From Histomonas meleagridis (lineage: Eukaryota; Parabasalia; Tritrichomonadida; Dientamoebidae), in assembly GCA_020186115.1 (NCBI GenBank), contig WSYJ01000099.1, positions 682,001-746,000 on the forward strand: 64,000 nucleotides of DNA, read 5' to 3'. How positions within the stretch are numbered: the stretch's first letter is position 1; every line of letters begins with the position of its first letter. The notes under the pieces were generated by a model. The model was given only the letters and a program-made list of their open reading frames with translations. It made no database searches and was not told the origin of the DNA. The translations under genes and the position numbers were made by a program. This document shows, piece after piece, positions 22,388 to 48,146 of the stretch.

Positions 22388-25300
22388 TTAAATATTGTCA
22401 ACATAATCATTTTCCTTGAAATCTATTGCGAAAGGATCCTCATCTATACCAGACAAGTTCATCACATTTCTCATTGAGATATTATTCTCAATTGTTTCTT
22501 CTTCATTTACACTTTCAACAATACTTTGTTTCTTAATTTTCTTCTTAGAACGGACAAGTATTATTACGATTATTGTAATAATTAAAATTACTACGATACA
22601 AACGCAAACGGCTATAATAATAGTTTGATTATCTGATTTATTTTGATTATTATTTATGTAATCTTTTTTGATAATTGTATAAAACCCTGTGTAATACGAA
22701 AAATAAGATGAGTATTCGATAACTGAATATACATAATAAATAAATCCAGTTTCGAAATATGAATATGATGATCCGAATAAAGAAAGAATAAAAGTGTTTT
22801 TAAATTCAGTTTTATGAATAATTGTTTGTGTAATTGATTCTGTAAATACTATTGTATGAATATATGTTTCACCAAATTTTCTTGAAGGTGAAAACGTATT
22901 TGAATTTGTGAGTATATTTGTAAATGTTTCTAAAATTTGTTTTGATGATGTAAATGTATTTGATCTGGTGAATGTGTTGGACTCAGTAAATGAATTTGAT
23001 TTTGTAAAAGTTTTTGATTTCGTAAAAGAATTAGATTTTGTGAATATATTAGATTTAGTAAATGCTTTTGATTTAGTAAATGTATTTGATTTAGTAAAAA
23101 TTTTAGATTTAGTAAATGTATTTGATTGTGTAAATGAATTTGAAAATGTTTGCGATTGCGTAAATGTATCAGTAAAAGTATGTGTCGGCCATGGATATTG
23201 ATTACATTCAGAAACGGAAGAACCCGGAGATACATTAAGTGTACCAAATGTTGTATCTTGATATAAATCTGATGTCATAACATATGCTGCTGGCACACCA
23301 TCAAAAGCGCTTGAATGTATTGATGGTGATTCATAACCGGTAAAATAAATACATTTTAAGCATCTGCAATCTTCAAAAGCATTCATTCCAATTGATTTGA
23401 CATTTTTTCCTATAATAATTGTATCTAAATTAGAACATGAAGAAAATAGAGAACCTCCAATTGAATTTAAACTTTCACCAATAATAACTTTCTCTAAATT
23501 AATGCATAAGGAGAATGCAGCATTCCCAATAATATTAACAGAATCTGGAATTATAATATTTGTTAATGATGAACATTCACGAAATGTACTCGTTCCTATT
23601 GATTCCAAATTTTCGTTAAAAATAATATTAGTTAAATTAGAGCATGAATTGAATCCATAATTGCCAATTGTCTTAAGTTTATTTGGGATTGTGATATTAA
23701 TTAATGAAAAACAATCATAAAATGCATTATTTTCGATTGAATTTACATCATCTCCTATGACAACATTTTTCAAATTATAACAACTTTGAAACGCACTCTT
23801 TTTAATTGATGTTACTGAATTTGGGATTGTGATATTTATTAGTGATGAACATGAACGAAATGCTTCAATTGGAATTGAAGTTATCAAATTTGGAATTTTT
23901 ATATTTACTAATGATGAACAAGATTGAAATATATAATTTCCAAAAGAATTTACATTTGGACCAAATATAACAGTTTCCAATTTAGAACATTGACTAAATA
24001 CATATGAATCAAATGAAGTAACTGAATCTGGAAAAGTTATATTTACTAATGATGAACATCCAACAAATGCTCGTATTTTAATTGAAGTTACTTTTTCTCC
24101 AATTATAACTGTTGTTAAATTAGAACATGAATCAAATAATTGACTTTCGATTGAAGTTATTAAATATGGTATTGTAATATTTTTTAATGATGTACACATT
24201 CTAAATACTGCACTTCCAATTGTTTTAACCGAATTGGGAATTTCAATATTTATCAATGATGCGCAAAAATTAAAAGTATATTTTCCAAAATATGTTAGAT
24301 TTTTGCTTAATATTACAGTTTCTAGTTTAGAACATGAATGAAATACATAATCATCAATTGATGTTACTGTATTCGGTATTGTAATTGTAACAAAAGAACA
24401 TTGTTGAAATGCACGAGATCCAATTGAAATTATATTTCCACTTAAGATAACTTCTGTTAAATTATAACATGAATTGAATAAATCATCGGATATAGAAGTG
24501 ACTAAATTCGGAATTGTGATATTTTGTAATGATAAACAATCAGAAAATGCTTCACTTCCAATTGAAGTAACTGACTCAGGAATTTTAATATTTATCAATG
24601 ATGAACAATATTGAAATGCATTATTAGATATTGTTGTTACATTTCCTTTGATAAGAATTGTTTCCAATTTATTGCAAGAATAAAATGTATATGAACCAAT
24701 TGAAGTTATATTTACTCCAATAATAGCAAATTTTAAATTAGTGCATTGATAAAATAGTTGATACCCAATTGAAGTCACTGAATCAGGAATTGTAAAATTT
24801 AATAATGATGAGCATTGATAAAATGCTTGAATACCAATTGATATTAAATTAATACTAATAATAACTATTTTAAGATTGGAACATGAAGAAAATGTTTGAT
24901 CCTCAATTTTTTTAACTGTATTTGGTATTGTAATATTTATCAAAGATGTACATGAATTAAATGCACTTTTCCCGATTGAATCCAAATTTTTGCCATCGAT
25001 AATGACTTCTATATTTGAACATCCTTGGAATGCAAAATTTCCAATCGAAGTAACCAAATCTGGAATTGTAATATTCCTTAATGATGAACATCCATAAAAT
25101 GTATAATCATTAATTGAAGTTACATTTTTACCAATAATGGCTATTTCCATTTGAGAGCATTGATAAAATGCGCGTTCACCTATTGAAGTAACTAAATCTG
25201 GAATTTCAATATTTGCCAATTTAGAACATTGAGAAAACGTAAAAGCTTCAATTAAAGTTAAACTTTTACTGATAATAAATGTTTCTAAATTTGAACATAG

Positions 25301-27288
25301 ATTAAATGCACTTTTACCAATTGAAGAAACTAAATCTGGAATTATGATACTTATAAAAGAACAACGATAAAATGAATAATCACCAATTGAAGTTACATTT
25401 TTACCAATAGTAACTACTTCTAAATTTAAACATTGATAAAATGCATAATTTCCAATAGAAGTAACTAAATCTGGAATTGTAATATTTATCAATTCAGAAC
25501 ATTGATAAAATGCAGAATCACCAATTGAAGAAACTAAATCTGGAATTGAAATATTTATTAATTTGGAACATTGATAAAATGCAGAATCACCAATTGAAGT
25601 TACACTTTTACCTATGATAGCTACTTCTAAGTTAGAACATCCTTGGAATGCATAATTTCCAATTGAAGTAACTAAATCTGGTATTGTAATATTTATTAAT
25701 TTGGAACATTCATAAAACATATTAATGTCAATTAAAGTTACACTTTTACCTATGATAGCTACTTCCAAATTAGAACATTGATAAAATGCATAATATCCAA
25801 TTGAGGTAACTAAGTCTGGTATTGTAATATTTGTTAATGATGAACATTGATAAAATATTGAATAACCAATTTTTTCTACATTAGGCCCAATAATTGCTAT
25901 TTTGAGATTAGAACATTGATAAAATACATAAGAACCAATTGAAGTTACACTTTTACCTATGATAGCTACTTCTAAATTAGAACATGAATGGAATGCATAA
26001 TTTCCAATTGAAGTAACTAAATCTGGTATTGTAATATTTGTTAATGATGTTGATAAAATGTATAAGATCCAATTTTTGGTACATTTTCTCCAATAATTGC
26101 TATTTTGAGATTAGAACATTGATAAAACATGTAATCACCAATTGAATTAACCAAATCTGGAATTGTAATATTTACTAATTTAGAACATTGATAAAATATA
26201 TAAGATCCAATTGAAGTCACATTTTTACCAATAATAGTTATTTCTAGGTTAGAACATTGATAAAATACATAAGAACCAATGAATTTAACTAAGTCTGGAA
26301 TTGTAATATTCACTAATTTAGAACATTGGTAAAATGCGTAATCCCCAATTGAAGTTACTAAGTCTGGAATTGTAATATTCACTAATTTAGAACATTGGTA
26401 AAATGCGTAATTTCCAATTGAAGTAACTAAATCTGGTATTATAATATTTGTCAATGATGTACAATGATAAAATGCACCATCTCCAATTTTTATAACTGTA
26501 TTCGGTATTTCAAATGATACATCTTTAATTGTTTCTGGATAAAAAATAATTGCTTTATAATCTTTATCGTAAAGAACTTTATTATTTTCAGTAGAAAAAT
26601 AATTATTTTCTTCAGATACTTCAATATATTGAAGTTTAGAGCATCCAATAAATACCAATGTTCCGATTGATGTGACTGAGTTTGGAATTGTAATATTTGT
26701 TAATGATGAACAATTATAAAAAGCACAATCTTCAATTGTTGTAACTGTTTTTGGTATTTCAAATATTGCATTAGATTTCCCTTCTGGATGAGAAATAAGT
26801 TTTGTACAATCTTTATTATAAAGAATTCCTTCATTGCTACAATAATTATTGTTTTCAGTAGACACAGTAATAGTTTTGAGTTTCGAGCAACCAATAAATA
26901 CAGCTTTCCCAATTGAATTTACTGATTTTGGAATATTAAAACTTGTTAGTGATGTACATCCATAAAATGCACAATTTTCAATAGTTGTTATAGTATCTCC
27001 TAAGGTAACTGTATTCAATAAAGGGCATGAACTAAATGCATATTCTCCAATTTTAGTAACAGAATCACTAATTTCAACAGTAAGTAATGAATTCCATGAA
27101 GAAAATGAGCTGCTAGCTAAAACTTCAACTCCTCCATTAATAATGAGGTACTTAGCATTCTTGTATAAGTCCCTTGTTTTATAATAAGTGGATGAAGAAA
27201 TTTCAAGTGTTTTTGTAATTATATTGTATAATTCAAATGAATGAGCAAAAAAAATAATAAATAAAAAGAGTGGAATCTTGTGTTTCAT
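22388..27288 (-). pseudogene. BspA-like leucine-rich-repeat surface protein, broken by a 4-bp deletion
   Basis: ATG 27288 begins a signal peptide (MKHKIPLFLFIIFFAHS). Dozens of treponema-type LRR units follow (F-x-x-C-S-x-L-x-N-I-x-I-P-x-x-V-T-S-I-G). Then come a Thr/Ser spacer of repeated FTKSNTFTKSK units (about 22905-23190), a transmembrane helix (about 22560-22630), a basic stop-transfer RSKKKIKK, and an acidic tail ending DPFAIDFKENDYVDNI. At 26041-26050 the usual repeat wording lacks 4 bp, so the first part ends at TAA there; downstream the frame stays open back past 26000. BspA-like proteins are a huge trichomonad surface family implicated in adhesion. Either this copy is a pseudogene or the deletion is an assembly error. 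The region upstream of ATG 27288 stays open to 27765 but has no signal for extension. Confidence 0.85.
22905..23190 (-). repeat. Phe-Thr-x-Ser stalk repeat
   Basis: About fifteen tandem copies of a 6-residue (18-bp) unit (FTKSNTFTKSKTFTKS and variants) form the extracellular stalk between the LRR domain and the membrane helix of the BspA-like protein. Rich in Ser/Thr, it is a likely O-glycosylation or phosphoglycan site and prone to length change. Confidence 0.8.
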
Positions 27289-35846: not shown

Positions 35847-37748
35847 TTAACTATCAAATACATTATCTTCAAGCATGATTCCGTTAATCTCCTTCAGGTC
35901 CTCTTTGTTACGGCGGCACATAAATGCGACAACTATACCGCTGACAATGAGCACGACCAAAATTAGTGCAACAGAAATATAAACAGCGACCGATCCAACA
36001 CTTGATTTCTCAGATGTCTGTTGTGTTGTAACATCAACAGTTGTTTCTTCCTCAGATGTCTCTTCTTCTTGTGTTTGTTGAGATGAAACTTCTGATGAAA
36101 TTTCGGTTATAATTTCAGAGGAAACTTCGGTTATAATTTCAGAAGATATTTCGGTTATAATTTCAGAGGAAACTTCGGTTATAATTTCAGAAGATATTTC
36201 GGTTGTAATTTCTGATGAAACTTCGGTTGTAATTTCAGAAGATATTTCGGTTGTAATTTCTGATGAAACTTCGGTTGTAATTTCAGAGGAAATTTCGGTT
36301 TTGATTTCTGATGTTGTTTCTTCAGATGAAACAACTGTTGTAGCCTCAGATGAAACTATAGTTGTGGCTTCAGACGAAATTTCAGACGTTGTTTCGATCT
36401 CAGGTATATACGCCTCGAATCCTAAGCATGTGAAATTTTGTGTTTCATGACAAGTTCGTCGGAATACAATTTGCGAATCATTTACAAATGGCAACTCTCC
36501 GACGTCTAATAGCGACTCAAATGATTCACATTTAAGTGACTTCACACAGAACACATTTGATGAGATTGAACTATTAAACTGTTCTAATTCACCGCTATGT
36601 ATTAATTTAATTAAAGATGGATGATTACTTTCATCAATAATCGTCTCAGTTAAATTAATTAAAGGCACATTGTCTGTTCGATAACTTATATCGATATTTG
36701 AATCTGGTAAAAATGAGACTTTACCAAGTTCATTTGATGCAATATTGCTAAGCATGCTCATAGACATATTGCAATTAACTTCAATTTCATTTGTAAATTG
36801 AAGTTGAATATTTTCTGATTGAAATTCATTGAGCGTCACTTTTCCACCGTTAAGTGTCACTTTTGAAAGTAAATTGCACTTTTTGATCGTTGCGGAATTT
36901 GTTCCATATGTAAACATTGTGTTATCATTGGTTAATTGAAGAGTGCTTCCATTGGGCATGTCATATAAAAGAAGTTCTGCTTCAACGTTTTCTTTGAACT
37001 CAATGTCAAATGTATGGTCTGGAATTCCACCTAATTCAATTGATTCAAGTGGTTCAGTGGTTATTTGTAAAGAACTAAGATATGATATTGGTGAATGAAT
37101 TGATTTGTCAACATTAATTTTGCCAGTGCCAGGTGAAAGAATTGATTTATCATTTAAATAAAGTTCATGTAAATTTAAAACGTTATAGCTAATGATGTTT
37201 TCTTTTTCAGAACGAATTGATAAACTAGAGAGACCATACTCAGTAGATTCTGTTGAAATTTTGATCGAGCCATTTCCATATGATTGGAGAGCAATTGGCA
37301 TATTACCAGTAATACCAGTGGCAGTAAAATCTGATGGTGTTAAAACAACGAAAATGAGGTCATCAAATGAAATTTGATTCCAATATTCATCTGAAAACGA
37401 AATAGTTGTAGGCTTGCTAAGATTGCATACAATTGGTGTGAACTCTTTAGGATCATCTTCAAAATAAATATCAAAACTTTGTGAGCTTTGCTCAATTTGC
37501 CTAAGTAAAATTCCGCTTTTAATTATTCCAGAAAAAGTAATTGGACCACTTCCTTCAATTCCTAGTTCAATTTTATTTTGCCCAAAAGTAATATTTTTTA
37601 AATTCGAAGGGATATTAAAATACGCTTCTGGATTTATTTCATCAATAAGACTATTTGCATTTTTTATGTTGCTTGAAGTGTCCTTTGAGTTTTCAAGGCT
37701 ATTTTGGCGAGGTAAAAAAGCAGAGAAGCAAAAAAGATCAAAAAGCAT
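35847..37748 (-). CDS. mucin-like type I membrane protein with SSEITTE repeats
   Basis: I choose ATG 37748 (MLFDLFCFSAF, a signal-peptide-like start) instead of the upstream in-frame ATG at 37790. About 440 residues of beta-rich, N-glycosylation-site-rich ectodomain follow, then a Ser/Thr/Glu stalk of 8-residue units (SSEITTEVSSEITTEI, about 36088-36310). A transmembrane helix (VAVYISVALILVVLIVSGIV), Cys-Arg-Arg and a short acidic tail ending LEDNVFDS complete it. This is the layout of trichomonad surface proteins, with a stalk likely to be O-glycosylated. The ectodomain is not BspA-type and I do not recognise it. The short cytoplasmic tail resembles, in charge and length, those of the BspA-like proteins. 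Confidence 0.72.
   Translation of the reverse strand: MLFDLFCFSAFLPRQNSLENSKDTSSNIKNANSLIDEINPEAYFNIPSNLKNITFGQNKIELGIEGSGPITFSGIIKSGILLRQIEQSSQSFDIYFEDDPKEFTPIVCNLSKPTTISFSDEYWNQISFDDLIFVVLTPSDFTATGITGNMPIALQSYGNGSIKISTESTEYGLSSLSIRSEKENIISYNVLNLHELYLNDKSILSPGTGKINVDKSIHSPISYLSSLQITTEPLESIELGGIPDHTFDIEFKENVEAELLLYDMPNGSTLQLTNDNTMFTYGTNSATIKKCNLLSKVTLNGGKVTLNEFQSENIQLQFTNEIEVNCNMSMSMLSNIASNELGKVSFLPDSNIDISYRTDNVPLINLTETIIDESNHPSLIKLIHSGELEQFNSSISSNVFCVKSLKCESFESLLDVGELPFVNDSQIVFRRTCHETQNFTCLGFEAYIPEIETTSEISSEATTIVSSEATTVVSSEETTSEIKTEISSEITTEVSSEITTEISSEITTEVSSEITTEISSEIITEVSSEIITEISSEIITEVSSEIITEISSEVSSQQTQEEETSEEETTVDVTTQQTSEKSSVGSVAVYISVALILVVLIVSGIVVAFMCRRNKEDLKEINGIMLEDNVFDS
36088..36310 (-). 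repeat. 24-bp tandem repeats coding the SSEITTE stalk
   Basis: About nine 24-bp units alternate between E-V and E-I versions, so a 48-bp higher-order unit is also visible (SSEITTEV/SSEITTEI, later SSEIITEV/SSEIITEI). The alternation indicates expansion by duplication of a two-unit block; length variation between strains is expected. Confidence 0.85.
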
Positions 37749-45553: not shown

Positions 45554-48146
45554 TTATAATCTATTTGTTTTGTTTGTATTATTCCTAAGTATTTCTACTA
45601 TTTCTTTTTGGCCATTTTTTGATGCTTTCATAAGTGCTGTTTCAAACATTTTATATAATTTCCAAATATTATTTTAAAATAAAAAATTATTAAAATAAAC
45701 ATTAAAGAAAGCAAATAAATATCTTTAGCATTAATATCAATTCCTTCTTTTTCAAGAAGTATTTCTACTATCTCAGCATAATCATTTTCAGATGCAGTCA
45801 TTAGTGCTGTTTCGAAGATTTTTCATAAATTTCAAATATTATTTTGAAATATTAAGTTATACAAATAAAATTTAAACAAAATAAAACAACATTTTTAGCA
45901 TTAACATCAATTCCTTCTTTTTCAAGAAGTAATTTAACTATATCTTTTTCACCATAAAAAGATGCTTTTATAAGAGCCGTTTCAAATAATTTAAATAAAT
46001 TCCAAATATTATTTTGATATATCAAATATTGAAAACAAATTTTAAATAAAATATACGAATATTTTTTGCATTAACATCAATTCCATCTTGATTAAGAAGT
46101 AATTTAACTATTTCTTTTTGATTATTATTCGATGCATAAATGAGTGCTGTTTCAAAGATTTCGAATAGTTCCCAAATATTATTTTAAAATTGTATATTTT
46201 TAAAATTAATATAGAAAAAAATAATTAAATATCTTTCATATTAACATCAATTCCTTCTTGTTGAAGAAGCATTTCAGTTATTTCTATATGTCCAAATCTA
46301 GATGCATTAATAAGTGATGTCCTAAATGTATGAAATAATTTTCATATGTTAATATGAAATTTCGAATAAATAAAATAAATATCAACTAAAACATAATAAC
46401 ATCTTTAGCATTAACATCAATTTCTTTGTGATTAAGTAGTAATTTAACTATATCTTTTTTATTATTTTCTGTTGCTATAATAAGTGCTGTTTTAAACAAT
46501 TTAAATAATTTTTAAATATTATAATGTAACATGATATGATTTATATCAATATAAAATAAATTAAATAAATATCTATTGAATTAATATTAATTTTATCTTG
46601 TTTAAGAAGTAAATTTACTATATCTGTTTTGCCTTTATCAGATGCAACAAGAAGTGATGTACAAAACAATTTATATAAATTCCAAATAAATTTTTAAAAT
46701 ATTAAATTATTAAAATTAAAATAAAACGAAGGAAGTAAAAATTTTTAGCATTAATATCAATTTCATTTTTCTTAAGAAGCAAATTTATTATTTCTATATT
46801 ACCTTTTTCGGTTGCATATAAAAAAGCTGTTGTAAATATTTTAGGTAATTTCCAAATGTTATTTTGAGATAATAAACAATAAAATAAAATTTCATAAAAA
46901 ACAATTAAACGTTTTTAGCATTAACTTCGACACCTTTTTGTTCAAGAATATATTCAATGAGTTCAATATTTTCAGATTTTATTGATTCAAACAAAATTCC
47001 TGGAGGTGTGTAACAATAGTTATTGAGAAAATATTGAACCAAATATAAATTACCGATTTTTGCTGATACATTAATATTGCAATTATTAAGTATCATTCCT
47101 TTTTCTACCAAATATGTGATTATTTCATAATTTCCACTAATAATACAAAAGTAACACAAATAATTAAATTTTTTTTGCTGAAATATCTGCTCTTGAGTCA
47201 AATTTTGATCGAAAAATTGTTTTTCGAATATAAAAATTTGAAATTTATCAACAAAATTATTAAATTTTTCTAATTCATTTTCGTAAATATATTTGAATAT
47301 ATCATTTTGATGAAATTCTATTGCTGTTTCATATGCATTTTCAAATGTTGAATGATTTTGTTCACACAAATGAATAATCTCCAGATTTCCTCCTGCAACT
47401 GCATATTTACCTGCGTTATTGACATTCGCTCCATTTGATAATAAAAATTTAAAACATTTTACTGATCCAAAAAATGCTGAATAATCAATTAATGTAACAT
47501 TTCCTTCATTAATCAATGAACATCTTTCATAAAGTGATGGTTTAATTGTTTGATTAAAGTTAAAATTTGTTTGTGCTGATATTTCTTGAAGTTTTTCTAC
47601 TTCATCATTTCGAATTATTTTTGCTATTTCATATGGATTATGTCCTTCTTTAATGTAGTGCTTATGAAGCGCAAAATTATTCGATGAAAGTCTTTCATAT
47701 TCATCCCAAAAATCTCTGAAAAAAGGATCATTGTAATTCTTAATTTGGTTTTCATTCTTTGTCTTGTAATGTGCGAAATATAAAGATCCAATATTTTCTG
47801 TTCTACTTTTATCAATTAAATTTAGTTCAATCATTTTTTCAATGATATAATATGCTTCTTGTGATTTTATTTGAGAGATATACATTGCAAAAATATCAAT
47901 AATTGAATTATAATTCTTTTGGATTTGAATTAGATAGTTTAAGTATATATCAATTTCGTTATTTGGAGATAAAATGTGAAAGTAAATTAAATTACATAGA
48001 GCAGTATGAAAAGAAGTTGGATGACTTATATCCAAAAAACACATTGTCTGCTCAATTGATGATTCAATGTTTTTATTACTTAAATTTGATATGATATACT
48101 GAAGTCTTAACATTAATTCAAGTTCGGCAAACTGCGAGTTGTTCAT
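45554..48146 (-). CDS. DUF3447/ankyrin-repeat protein whose repeats are split by exact 80-nt spacers (gene A)
   Basis: ATG 48146 opens a frame with the DUF3447 domain (NNAGKYAVAGGNLEIIHLCE, FENAYETAIEFHQNDIFKYI) and contiguous ankyrin helices up to GVEVNAKN at 46911. Then eight modules follow: 46830-46741, 46660-46571, 46490-46401, 46320-46231, 46150-46061, 45980-45891, 45810-45721 (each exactly 90 nt, 30 codons) and a terminal module 45640-45554 ending in TAA. All are free of stops and read T-A/S-L-x-x-A ... E-I-V-x-L-L-L ... D-V-N-A-K-D. The eight spacers are each exactly 80 nt. Because 80 is not a multiple of three, read-through shifts the frame every time. The extent given assumes the spacers are removed; otherwise the protein ends at 46905. 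An M3-type motif lies just upstream (48165-48172). Confidence 0.7.

What the first reader, a model, noticed from the sequence alone, without database searches (positions are those of the whole stretch)
45554..46910. Ankyrin modules of exactly 90 nt separated by spacers of exactly 80 nt (gene A)
Eight spacers in a row are each 80 nt (46831-46910, 46661-46740, 46491-46570, 46321-46400, 46151-46230, 45981-46060, 45811-45890, 45641-45720). They separate seven 30-codon modules plus a terminal one with its own stop. No module has a stop or frameshift. The spacers are about 90 percent A+T, full of stops, start right after the conserved Asp/Asn and end right before the conserved Thr of the ankyrin repeat. 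Since 80 is 2 modulo 3, read-through would destroy the protein at each spacer. An ankyrin period of 34 residues would need 12 of the 80 nt as coding, leaving about 68 nt removed. The borders are not GT-AG, nor the GTAYGT / ACTAACACACAG signals known for trichomonad introns. This looks like an unrecognised class of intron, or a removed or bypassed element.
Basis: partly seen in the sequence, partly recalled or inferred. Interest (0 to 1): 0.93.

Follow-up and report, generated by a model that had tools for sequence, protein, structure and literature searches.

The report
Ankyrin codons split by 17-base inserts
In a poultry parasite, a large ankyrin gene family seems to carry 17-base inserts between successive single codons of each repeat's loop, so a way of removing or skipping them that nobody seems to have described would be needed to make the proteins.

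Summary
The eight 80-nt spacers between 90-nt ankyrin modules are real. The genome matches Histomonas meleagridis, and the same unit recurs widely in it. Each spacer is not one element but four 20-nt units: a 17-nt AT-rich insert plus one sense codon. The codons read x2-x3-G4-x5, completing the canonical hairpin D1-x2-x3-G4-x5-T6. In 302 distinct 80-nt spacers, 0 of 1208 of these codons is a stop, against 58 expected from column shuffles; the other 74 offsets show 1874 against 1912. Three of the four codons are hypervariable while inserts are conserved. Inserts measured 17 nt in 1626 of 1665 cases outside one noisy array. Of 74 spacers of other length, 36 parse into whole 17-nt inserts and codons; most of the rest are 81-82 nt. 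Protein selection thus acts on codons separated by 17-nt inserts. Termini are R-T-T..T-T-Y, not GT-AG. How inserts are removed is not shown: RNA excision is most likely, translational skipping the main rival. No RNA or peptide data could be examined.

The parts
46905..48146 (-). ORF of 413 aa: N-terminal region with DUF3447 and ankyrin-like matches, ending N-A-K-N-V-stop inside the first insert. The 413 codons are one uninterrupted frame.
   Evidence: Pfam Ank_2, Ank_4, DUF3447; 141 matches in the genome
46831..46910 (-). Spacer 1: inserts 46894-46910, 46874-46890, 46854-46870, 46834-46850; codons GAA(E), ATT(I), GGA(G), ACA(T)
46741..46830 (-). Ankyrin module 1, 30 codons T6...N1
46661..46740 (-). 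Spacer 2: four 17-nt inserts, codons TAT(Y), AAT(N), GGA(G), TGT(C)
46571..46660 (-). Ankyrin module 2, 30 codons
46491..46570 (-). Spacer 3: four 17-nt inserts, codons TAT(Y), CAT(H), AAA(K), AAA(K)
46401..46490 (-). Ankyrin module 3, 30 codons
46321..46400 (-). Spacer 4: four 17-nt inserts, codons GAT(D), GAA(E), GAA(E), AGG(R)
46231..46320 (-). Ankyrin module 4, 30 codons
46151..46230 (-). Spacer 5: four 17-nt inserts, codons TAT(Y), ACA(T), GGG(G), GAA(E)
46061..46150 (-). Ankyrin module 5, 30 codons
45981..46060 (-). Spacer 6: four 17-nt inserts, codons AAA(K), GAT(D), GGA(G), GAA(E)
45891..45980 (-). Ankyrin module 6, 30 codons
45811..45890 (-). Spacer 7: four 17-nt inserts, codons AAA(K), AAT(N), GAA(E), GAA(E)
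45721..45810 (-). Ankyrin module 7, 30 codons
45641..45720 (-). Spacer 8: inserts 45704-45720, 45684-45700, 45664-45680, 45644-45660; codons AAT(N), TTT(F), GGA(G), GAA(E)
45554..45640 (-). Terminal module with its own in-frame stop TAA (45554-45556)

Best explanation
The array is the 3' part of an ankyrin gene whose reading frame is interrupted in every hairpin loop by inserts of fixed length, 17 nt, AT-rich, with termini R-T-T...T-T-Y. One insert lies after D1, after x2, after x3 and after G4; none lies between x5 and T6. Codons x2, x3 and G4 are thus left as single-codon 'exons' of 3 nt. The sequence evidence shows the anatomy and protein-level selection on these codons. I infer that the inserts are taken out of the RNA, as fixed-length micro-introns, by a spliceosome of altered specificity or another cut-and-join activity that recognises length and termini. 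The product would be an ankyrin stack of 34-residue repeats with a hypervariable surface. Duplication or loss of a 20-nt unit would add or remove one residue of the loop without a frameshift. Steps shown: layout, codon reading, recurrence across the genome, selection. Steps inferred: expression, removal at RNA level, the machinery, the function of the protein.
For: Codons at 18-20, 38-40, 58-60 and 78-80: 0 stops of 1208 in 302 distinct spacers against 58.3 expected; other 74 offsets 1874 against 1912; module frame 0 has 5 stops against 196, frames 1 and 2 near expectation. Residue use fits an ankyrin hairpin: x2 N/K/D/E, x3 Y/D/N and 13 others, G4 Gly in 251 of 302, x5 K/N/E/R/W/Y/D. The six lowest information values of the spacer are at positions 78, 38, 80, 39, 18 and 20, all inside these triplets. 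Helix codons 10, 13, 14, 16 and 17 vary most, core codons little. In the 27 most diverged spacers, 0 stops of 108 codons against 8.3% at other offsets. Outside array C72, 36 of 55 spacers of other length parse in register, for example 63 = one insert lost, 66, 83 and 86 = extra codons, 100, 140 and 160 = multiples of 20; another array has one of 200. Gaps between neighbouring Pfam Ank hits are 17 modulo 20 in 21 of 30 pairs, and in 5 more fit one skipped module (all 150 rows). Inserts are 17 nt in 1626 of 1665. ENA gene pieces of what I take to be another species carry 80-, 63- and 60-nt spacers, two of them (63 and 60) with insert C read as FQNNI.
Against: No transcript, ribosome or peptide evidence was available. 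Pooled dN/dS of modules is about 1 (0.98 in the window array, 1.04 between arrays); I read this as hypervariable plus conserved codons, but it is not a plain sign of purifying selection. Inserts are as conserved as modules, unusual for introns; homogenisation or sequence recognition would be needed. No GT-AG, and exons of 3 nt between 17-nt introns strain any known splicing. Of 74 spacers of other length under 180 nt, 38 do not parse in register: all 19 in array C72 and 19 of 55 elsewhere; 27 of the 38 are 81 or 82 nt. 12 of 506 modules hold a stop; 7 of these are followed by another module, four of them sharing one frameshift in C72. About 2% of inserts outside C72 parse as 16, 18 or 19 nt. 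Two small further arrays are less regular (L059: 74, 68 and 81 among its spacers; L061: 46, 40, 49). The insert motif was not found outside the arrays in the flanks scanned, nor as a split in the kinases listed (only 132 of 635 candidates scored, which favours unsplit genes), so there is no sign that it is general.
Confidence: 0.6

Rival explanations
1. Translational skipping: the inserts stay in the mRNA and the ribosome passes over 17 nt four times per repeat, like a much repeated form of bypassing.
For: Fixed length with loose sequence suggests a ruler. Inserts of blocks at 81 positions, corrected in translation, are known in Magnusiomyces mitochondria (PMC5009743, passages seen). No splice-site consensus is present.
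Against: The triplet before the resumption codon is nearly always TTT whatever the preceding codon; take-off equals landing in 2, 7, 12 and 0 of 302 spacers at the four inserts. Spacers fold no better than shuffles, z from -1.49 to 1.01. About 32 hops in this short gene and far more per genome would be needed in the cytosol.
Confidence: 0.2
2. One contiguous non-canonical intron of about 68 nt per repeat.
For: 68 of 80 nt is the right amount for a 34-residue repeat.
Against: Codons 18-20, 38-40 and 58-60 inside such an intron are stop-free, and 18-20 and 38-40 are hypervariable as triplets. Many length changes come in 20-, 17- and 3-nt steps.
Confidence: 0.03
3. Silent archive: modules and hairpin codons are cassettes that reach an expressed, insert-free gene by recombination; selection acts there.
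For: Inserts are homogeneous while codons and modules differ: 86 nearest-neighbour pairs of units with identical spacers differ by about 11% in the module, as if cassettes are shuffled. In one 200-nt spacer near-identical 17-mers separate ten mostly different codons.
Against: A (narrow) pattern for a directly joined hairpin of this kind found 1 place in the genome, in an unrelated ankyrin gene. No insert-free array of this family was seen in the stretches read.
Confidence: 0.08
4. Decaying tandem array or satellite without product.
For: The upstream ORF stops in the first spacer, and the deposited protein P0010 ends at the same place of its gene. Pooled dN/dS is near 1. 12 of 506 modules hold a stop.
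Against: 0 of 1208 and 5 of 11,250 in-frame stops against 58 and 196 expected; hypervariability concentrated in codon triplets and at surface positions of the ankyrin fold.
Confidence: 0.06
5. DNA-level excision of the inserts in an expressed copy of the genome, like ciliate internal eliminated sequences.
For: Short AT-rich elements of constant size resemble such sequences in outline (recalled).
Against: No TA at both ends: the first letter of the codon after the insert varies. The narrow pattern search found no excised form of this family in the assembly. Parabasalids are not known to have a second nucleus (recalled).
Confidence: 0.03

Closest known systems
Tiny spliceosomal introns of Stentor coeruleus (PMC9505925, section 2.1 read)
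   Same: Almost fixed length (15 nt in 92.81% of 8806, the rest 16 nt) and AU-rich (75.6%).
   Different: Most Stentor introns start GU and end AG, with a branch-point A mostly at position 10. The inserts here are 17 nt, start R-T-T, end T-T-Y, and are separated by single codons.
Trichomonad spliceosomal introns, type A 56-196 nt and type B 23-25 nt (PMC12316389, passages seen)
   Same: Trichomonads too (kinship recalled); short type B introns.
   Different: All 63 of T. vaginalis have GT/AG, an extended 5' motif and a branch site ACTAA fused to the 3' end. The pattern GTAYGT-N5-34-ACTAACACACAG has 0 matches in this genome, and the inserts printed do not have it.
Byps of Magnusiomyces capitatus mitochondria and phage T4 gene 60 (PMC5009743, passages seen)
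   Same: Blocks in coding sequence that are not translated; 81 positions in the first case.
   Different: [quoted passage not shown] Neither is seen here, the block length is constant, and these are nuclear genes.
Ankyrin-repeat and DUF3447 genes
   Same: Pfam Ank and DUF3447 matches; hairpin D-x-x-G-x-T and hypervariable surface codons as expected of ankyrin folds (recalled).
   Different: Other ankyrin genes of the genome can be contiguous (for example L062); here each hairpin is interrupted between codons.

Membership tests
Spliceosomal introns (GT-AG) | GT at the 5' end and AG at the 3' end | tested here: not met
   Pooled inserts start A 0.93, G 0.05 and end T-T-T with each T 0.94-0.95; window inserts likewise
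Spliceosomal introns (GT-AG) | Absent from mature RNA | not testable with these tools
   No RNA reads are held
Trichomonad introns | 5' GTAYGT and fused branch site/3' site ACTAACACACAG | tested here: not met
   0 exact matches in the genome for total lengths 23-52 nt; not in the inserts printed
Fixed-length tiny introns (Stentor type) | Near-constant very short length and AU richness | tested here: met
   17 nt in 1626 of 1665 outside C72, 133 of 158 in C72, with a model that leans to 17; A+T of the window's spacers 84-93%
Fixed-length tiny introns (Stentor type) | GU-AG ends | tested here: not met
[quoted passage not shown]
   2, 7, 12 and 0 of 302 spacers
Translational bypassing (T4 gene 60 type) | Stem-loop structure at the gap | tested here: not met
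   z-scores -1.49 to 1.01 for the eight window spacers
Ciliate internal eliminated sequences | Bounded by TA on both sides (recalled) | tested here: not met
   First letter of the codon after the insert varies
Decaying pseudogene array | Stops and frameshifts accumulate in former coding sequence | tested here: not met
   0 against 58 and 5 against 196 stops; 12 of 506 modules do hold a stop, 7 of them internal, and C72 has a shared frameshift
Ankyrin repeat | 33-34 residue repeat with hairpin D-x-x-G-x-T and helix pattern | tested here: met
   Module profile, hairpin codons, Pfam Ank hits over the cut-off in the genome. Structure of the assembled repeat not tested.

The most novel reading that the evidence does not exclude
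Histomonas and probably a relative use a class of interruption unlike any that I found described: fixed 17-nt inserts placed between consecutive single codons, thousands per genome and so far seen only in the variable loops of ankyrin genes, removed by a length-measuring RNA excision (or read past by the ribosome). Each 20-nt codon cassette could be duplicated, lost or exchanged without a frameshift, giving a way to diversify a binding loop residue by residue.
Probability: 0.6. Interest if true: 0.97.

Novelty: categorically new. Interest (0 to 1): 0.93.

Why it matters
If the codons between the inserts are decoded, which the stop and codon statistics support strongly, then a eukaryotic nuclear genome holds thousands of interruptions that no splicing or recoding rule I know explains. 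'Exons' of one codon and 'introns' of 17 nt without GT-AG would be at or beyond the limits of the spliceosome, or would need another machine. At least one deposited protein of this family (P0010) ends at the first insert, so the variable part of a large gene family may have been missed. The test is simple with RNA reads, so the question is directly answerable.

Tried and rejected
A single intron per spacer: rejected on the codon and length evidence. Direct-repeat borders or a 51 + 17 nt split: considered early, replaced by four 17-nt inserts once triplets 18-20 and 38-40 proved to be codons. RNA structure of the eight window spacers: none beyond shuffles. Overall dN/dS as a test: near 1 and not informative alone. 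An excess of an early stop (xTTTAA) at the start of first spacers: not seen, 1 of 32 against 4 of 356. Inserts elsewhere: the window gave 15 pair matches of a loose motif at gap 3 (its own array included) against 6-13 at other gaps and no triple; flanks of 39 stretches gave none of a stricter motif; of 133 kinase matches 126 had no stop inside, and the seven with stops were not looked into. Relatives in viral contigs: none in two scans. Genome contigs: two hits; L063 looks like a trichomonad contig binned with a bacterium, cut off before any array; L064 showed no module. A contiguous mature form in the protein collection: the region search returned only the query itself, with 5 candidates. Papers. 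No paper in the held library has any of six exact phrases for 17-nt introns or single-codon exons; the two holding Histomonas and ankyrin were a proteomics paper, where I saw passages with one table row naming an ankyrin protein, and a paper on Mixotricha, seen in the listing only. This does not cover subscription journals or preprints.

Full report
WHAT WAS CHECKED. The eight spacers are exactly 80 nt and the seven modules between them exactly 90 nt at the stated coordinates. Each module is open for 30 codons, and the terminal module carries its own stop at 45554-45556. The spacers are 84-93% A+T. Upstream lies a 413-aa ORF (46905-48146, minus) with DUF3447 and ankyrin matches.

WHERE IT IS. 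The window lies in a genome of 43.28 Mb in 121 contigs; G+C of the window is 28.8%. Contig C120 is 3,384,422 bases long, the very length of the largest contig of the virulent strain in the Histomonas meleagridis genome paper (PMC8529796, passages seen), so I take it to be that organism. That paper reports scarce introns (573 in the virulent strain), and the word ankyrin does not occur in its main text.

HOW COMMON. The 413-aa ORF has 141 matches in the genome, 101 of 2460 candidates being scored; about 40 of the matches are second pieces of a gene already listed. The array DNA has 109 matches, 40 of 1726 candidates scored. A 27-mer across module end and spacer start occurs 755 times, control 0. 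The pattern RTTTN9ATTTNNNRTTTN9AT occurs 5970 times against 1290 for the reversed control. Of the 150 scored Pfam Ank matches (10,139 candidates), 138 lie in open frames under 100 aa by my count of the listing, as expected if repeats are interrupted.

THE LAYOUT. I scanned 39 merged stretches (199 kb, merged) with a module profile and kept runs of three or more modules: 39 arrays, 506 modules, 388 of 467 distances exactly 170 nt. The six least informative positions of the 388 spacers of 80 nt are 78, 38, 80, 39, 18 and 20 (0.25-0.87 bits; then 72, 79, 9 and 45 at 1.04-1.15; mean 1.51). They fall in triplets 18-20, 38-40 and 78-80, which with 58-60 are spaced by 20 nt and read D1-x2-x3-G4-x5-T6, the ankyrin hairpin. 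In the 302 distinct spacers x2 is N 88, K 82, D 48, E 29 and others; x3 is Y 87, D 64, N 36 and 13 further residues; G4 is G 251, E 27, K 14 and others; x5 is K 59, N 56, E 53, R 40, W 27, Y 21, D 19 and others. The window's eight spacers give EIGT, YNGC, YHKK, DEER, YTGE, KDGE, KNEE and NFGE; five of the eight have G at G4.

THE TEST. If the four triplets were not read, stops should occur at the rate set by their letters. Shuffling each column among the 302 spacers gives 58.3 expected stops at the four triplets; 0 of 1208 are seen. At the other 74 offsets 1874 are seen and 1912 expected, though single offsets depart both ways. In 375 distinct modules frame 0 has 5 stops against 196 expected, while frames 1 and 2 have 634 against 690 and 2085 against 2063. 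The shuffles ignore relatedness. In the 27 spacers most diverged in their inserts the result holds: 0 of 108 codons against 166 of 1998 at other offsets. Within modules the most variable codons are ankyrin positions 10, 13, 14, 16 and 17, and core positions vary little. With x2, x3 and x5 this resembles the binding surface of ankyrin repeats (recalled).

LENGTH AS A SECOND LINE. Of 74 spacers with another length under 180 nt, 36 parse into whole 17-nt inserts with runs of at most three codons: 36 of 55 outside array C72, 0 of 19 in C72. Examples: 63 nt = one insert gone (14 spacers), 60 = a 20-nt unit gone, 66 = one insert gone and one codon more, 83 and 86 = extra codons, 100 = an extra 20-nt unit. 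The 38 others include 22 of 81 nt and 5 of 82 nt, 16 of these 27 in C72, where an extra A in a run is common. In L008 four successive spacers are 140, 140, 160 and 160 nt. In L060 one is 200 nt, ten units with near-identical 17-mers and the codons Y I R A I W W G G E. L059 and L061 are less regular. Among all 150 scored Pfam Ank matches there are 30 neighbouring pairs closer than 320 nt on one strand; the gap is 17 modulo 20 in 21, and 7 modulo 20, the value for one skipped module, in 5. A parse that allowed 16-19 nt with a penalty found 17 nt in 1626 of 1665 inserts outside C72 and 133 of 158 in it. It covered 462 of the 467 intervals; five of 230-248 nt were dropped. The insert model comes from 80-nt spacers, so it leans towards 17.

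THE INSERTS. Consensus forms are ATTTATTTGTTTTATTT, ATTTATTTTAATAATTT, ATTTCAAAATAATATTT and AATTATTTAAATTATTT. In diverged spacers the ends change less than the middle (0.23 against 0.32 per site); the first base is A or G in 88% and the last T or C in 93%. There is no GT-AG, no match to the trichomonad intron motif and no RNA structure beyond shuffles in the window spacers. The codon before an insert does not match the triplet before the next codon.

BEYOND THIS SPECIES. Proteins from ENA contigs, 35-54% identical to the window ORF where they cover at least 80% of it, run into such spacers. P0006 reads 27 codons, as through an 80-nt spacer with the same phase. P0026 holds 21 codons (63 nt) and P0025 20 codons (60 nt) between D1 and T6, and both, with P0028, which starts inside a spacer, contain FQNNIW, the reading of insert C and the start of G4. 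P0004 has a hairpin without inserts, N-VMFE-S, so four residues at that place. The organisms are not named, I could not read the DNA, and I cannot tell genomic contigs from transcripts.

MECHANISM. The data show where the frame is broken and that protein-level selection ignores the breaks. They do not show the process. RNA excision of fixed-length inserts is my first choice because fixed-length tiny introns exist (Stentor, 15-16 nt, PMC9505925 section 2.1) and because gene-60-type bypassing has matched codons (PMC5009743 passages), which are absent here. Translational skipping stays open. A silent archive of cassettes is possible but lacks a known insert-free expressed form.

RESULTS AGAINST MY READING. 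Pooled dN/dS is near 1. Inserts are as conserved as modules. 38 of 74 odd-length spacers do not parse in register, and 12 of 506 modules hold a stop, 7 of them followed by a further module. The array at C72 carries many 18-nt inserts and frameshifted modules. Nothing of the kind was seen outside ankyrin arrays, in limited looks. No RNA or peptide was examined.

VERDICT. I put the discontinuous reading at about 0.88, and RNA excision as the means at 0.6.

Noticed in passing
G000:C72:127000-136900 (L039): Array of 40 modules with many 18-nt inserts (often one more A in a run) and four modules sharing a frameshift; either sequencing error in homopolymers or a decaying array.
   Followed up: partly
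L060 (G000:C1:368700-369900, minus) and L008 (C62): Loops of 4 to 10 codon cassettes, near-identical 17-mers with different codons between them within one spacer of L060; suggests residue-by-residue loop diversification.
   Followed up: partly
G000:C78:376002-376739: Kinase match listed in an open frame of 22,955 aa, an extremely long ORF.
   Followed up: no
P0010, P0014, P0017: Deposited Histomonas proteins named cask-interacting protein; P0010 ends at the first insert and P0014 and P0017 end in what look like other frames, so gene models of this family may be truncated.
   Followed up: partly
L063 (CALUSQ010000040.1): Contig filed under a Gastranaerophilales bacterium encodes the N-terminal part of this gene family next to what looks by eye like a transposase ORF; probably a eukaryotic contaminant.
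   Followed up: partly
window 24680-26488, 36090-36379, 22950-23143: Tandem repeats with periods of 69/138/207, 24/48 and 18 nt inside or near ORFs, perhaps repeat-protein genes.
   Followed up: no
G000:C72:192639-198876: Ank matches at distances of 147, 167, 187 and 247 nt: perhaps a subfamily with 33-residue repeats and variable numbers of 20-nt units.
   Followed up: partly
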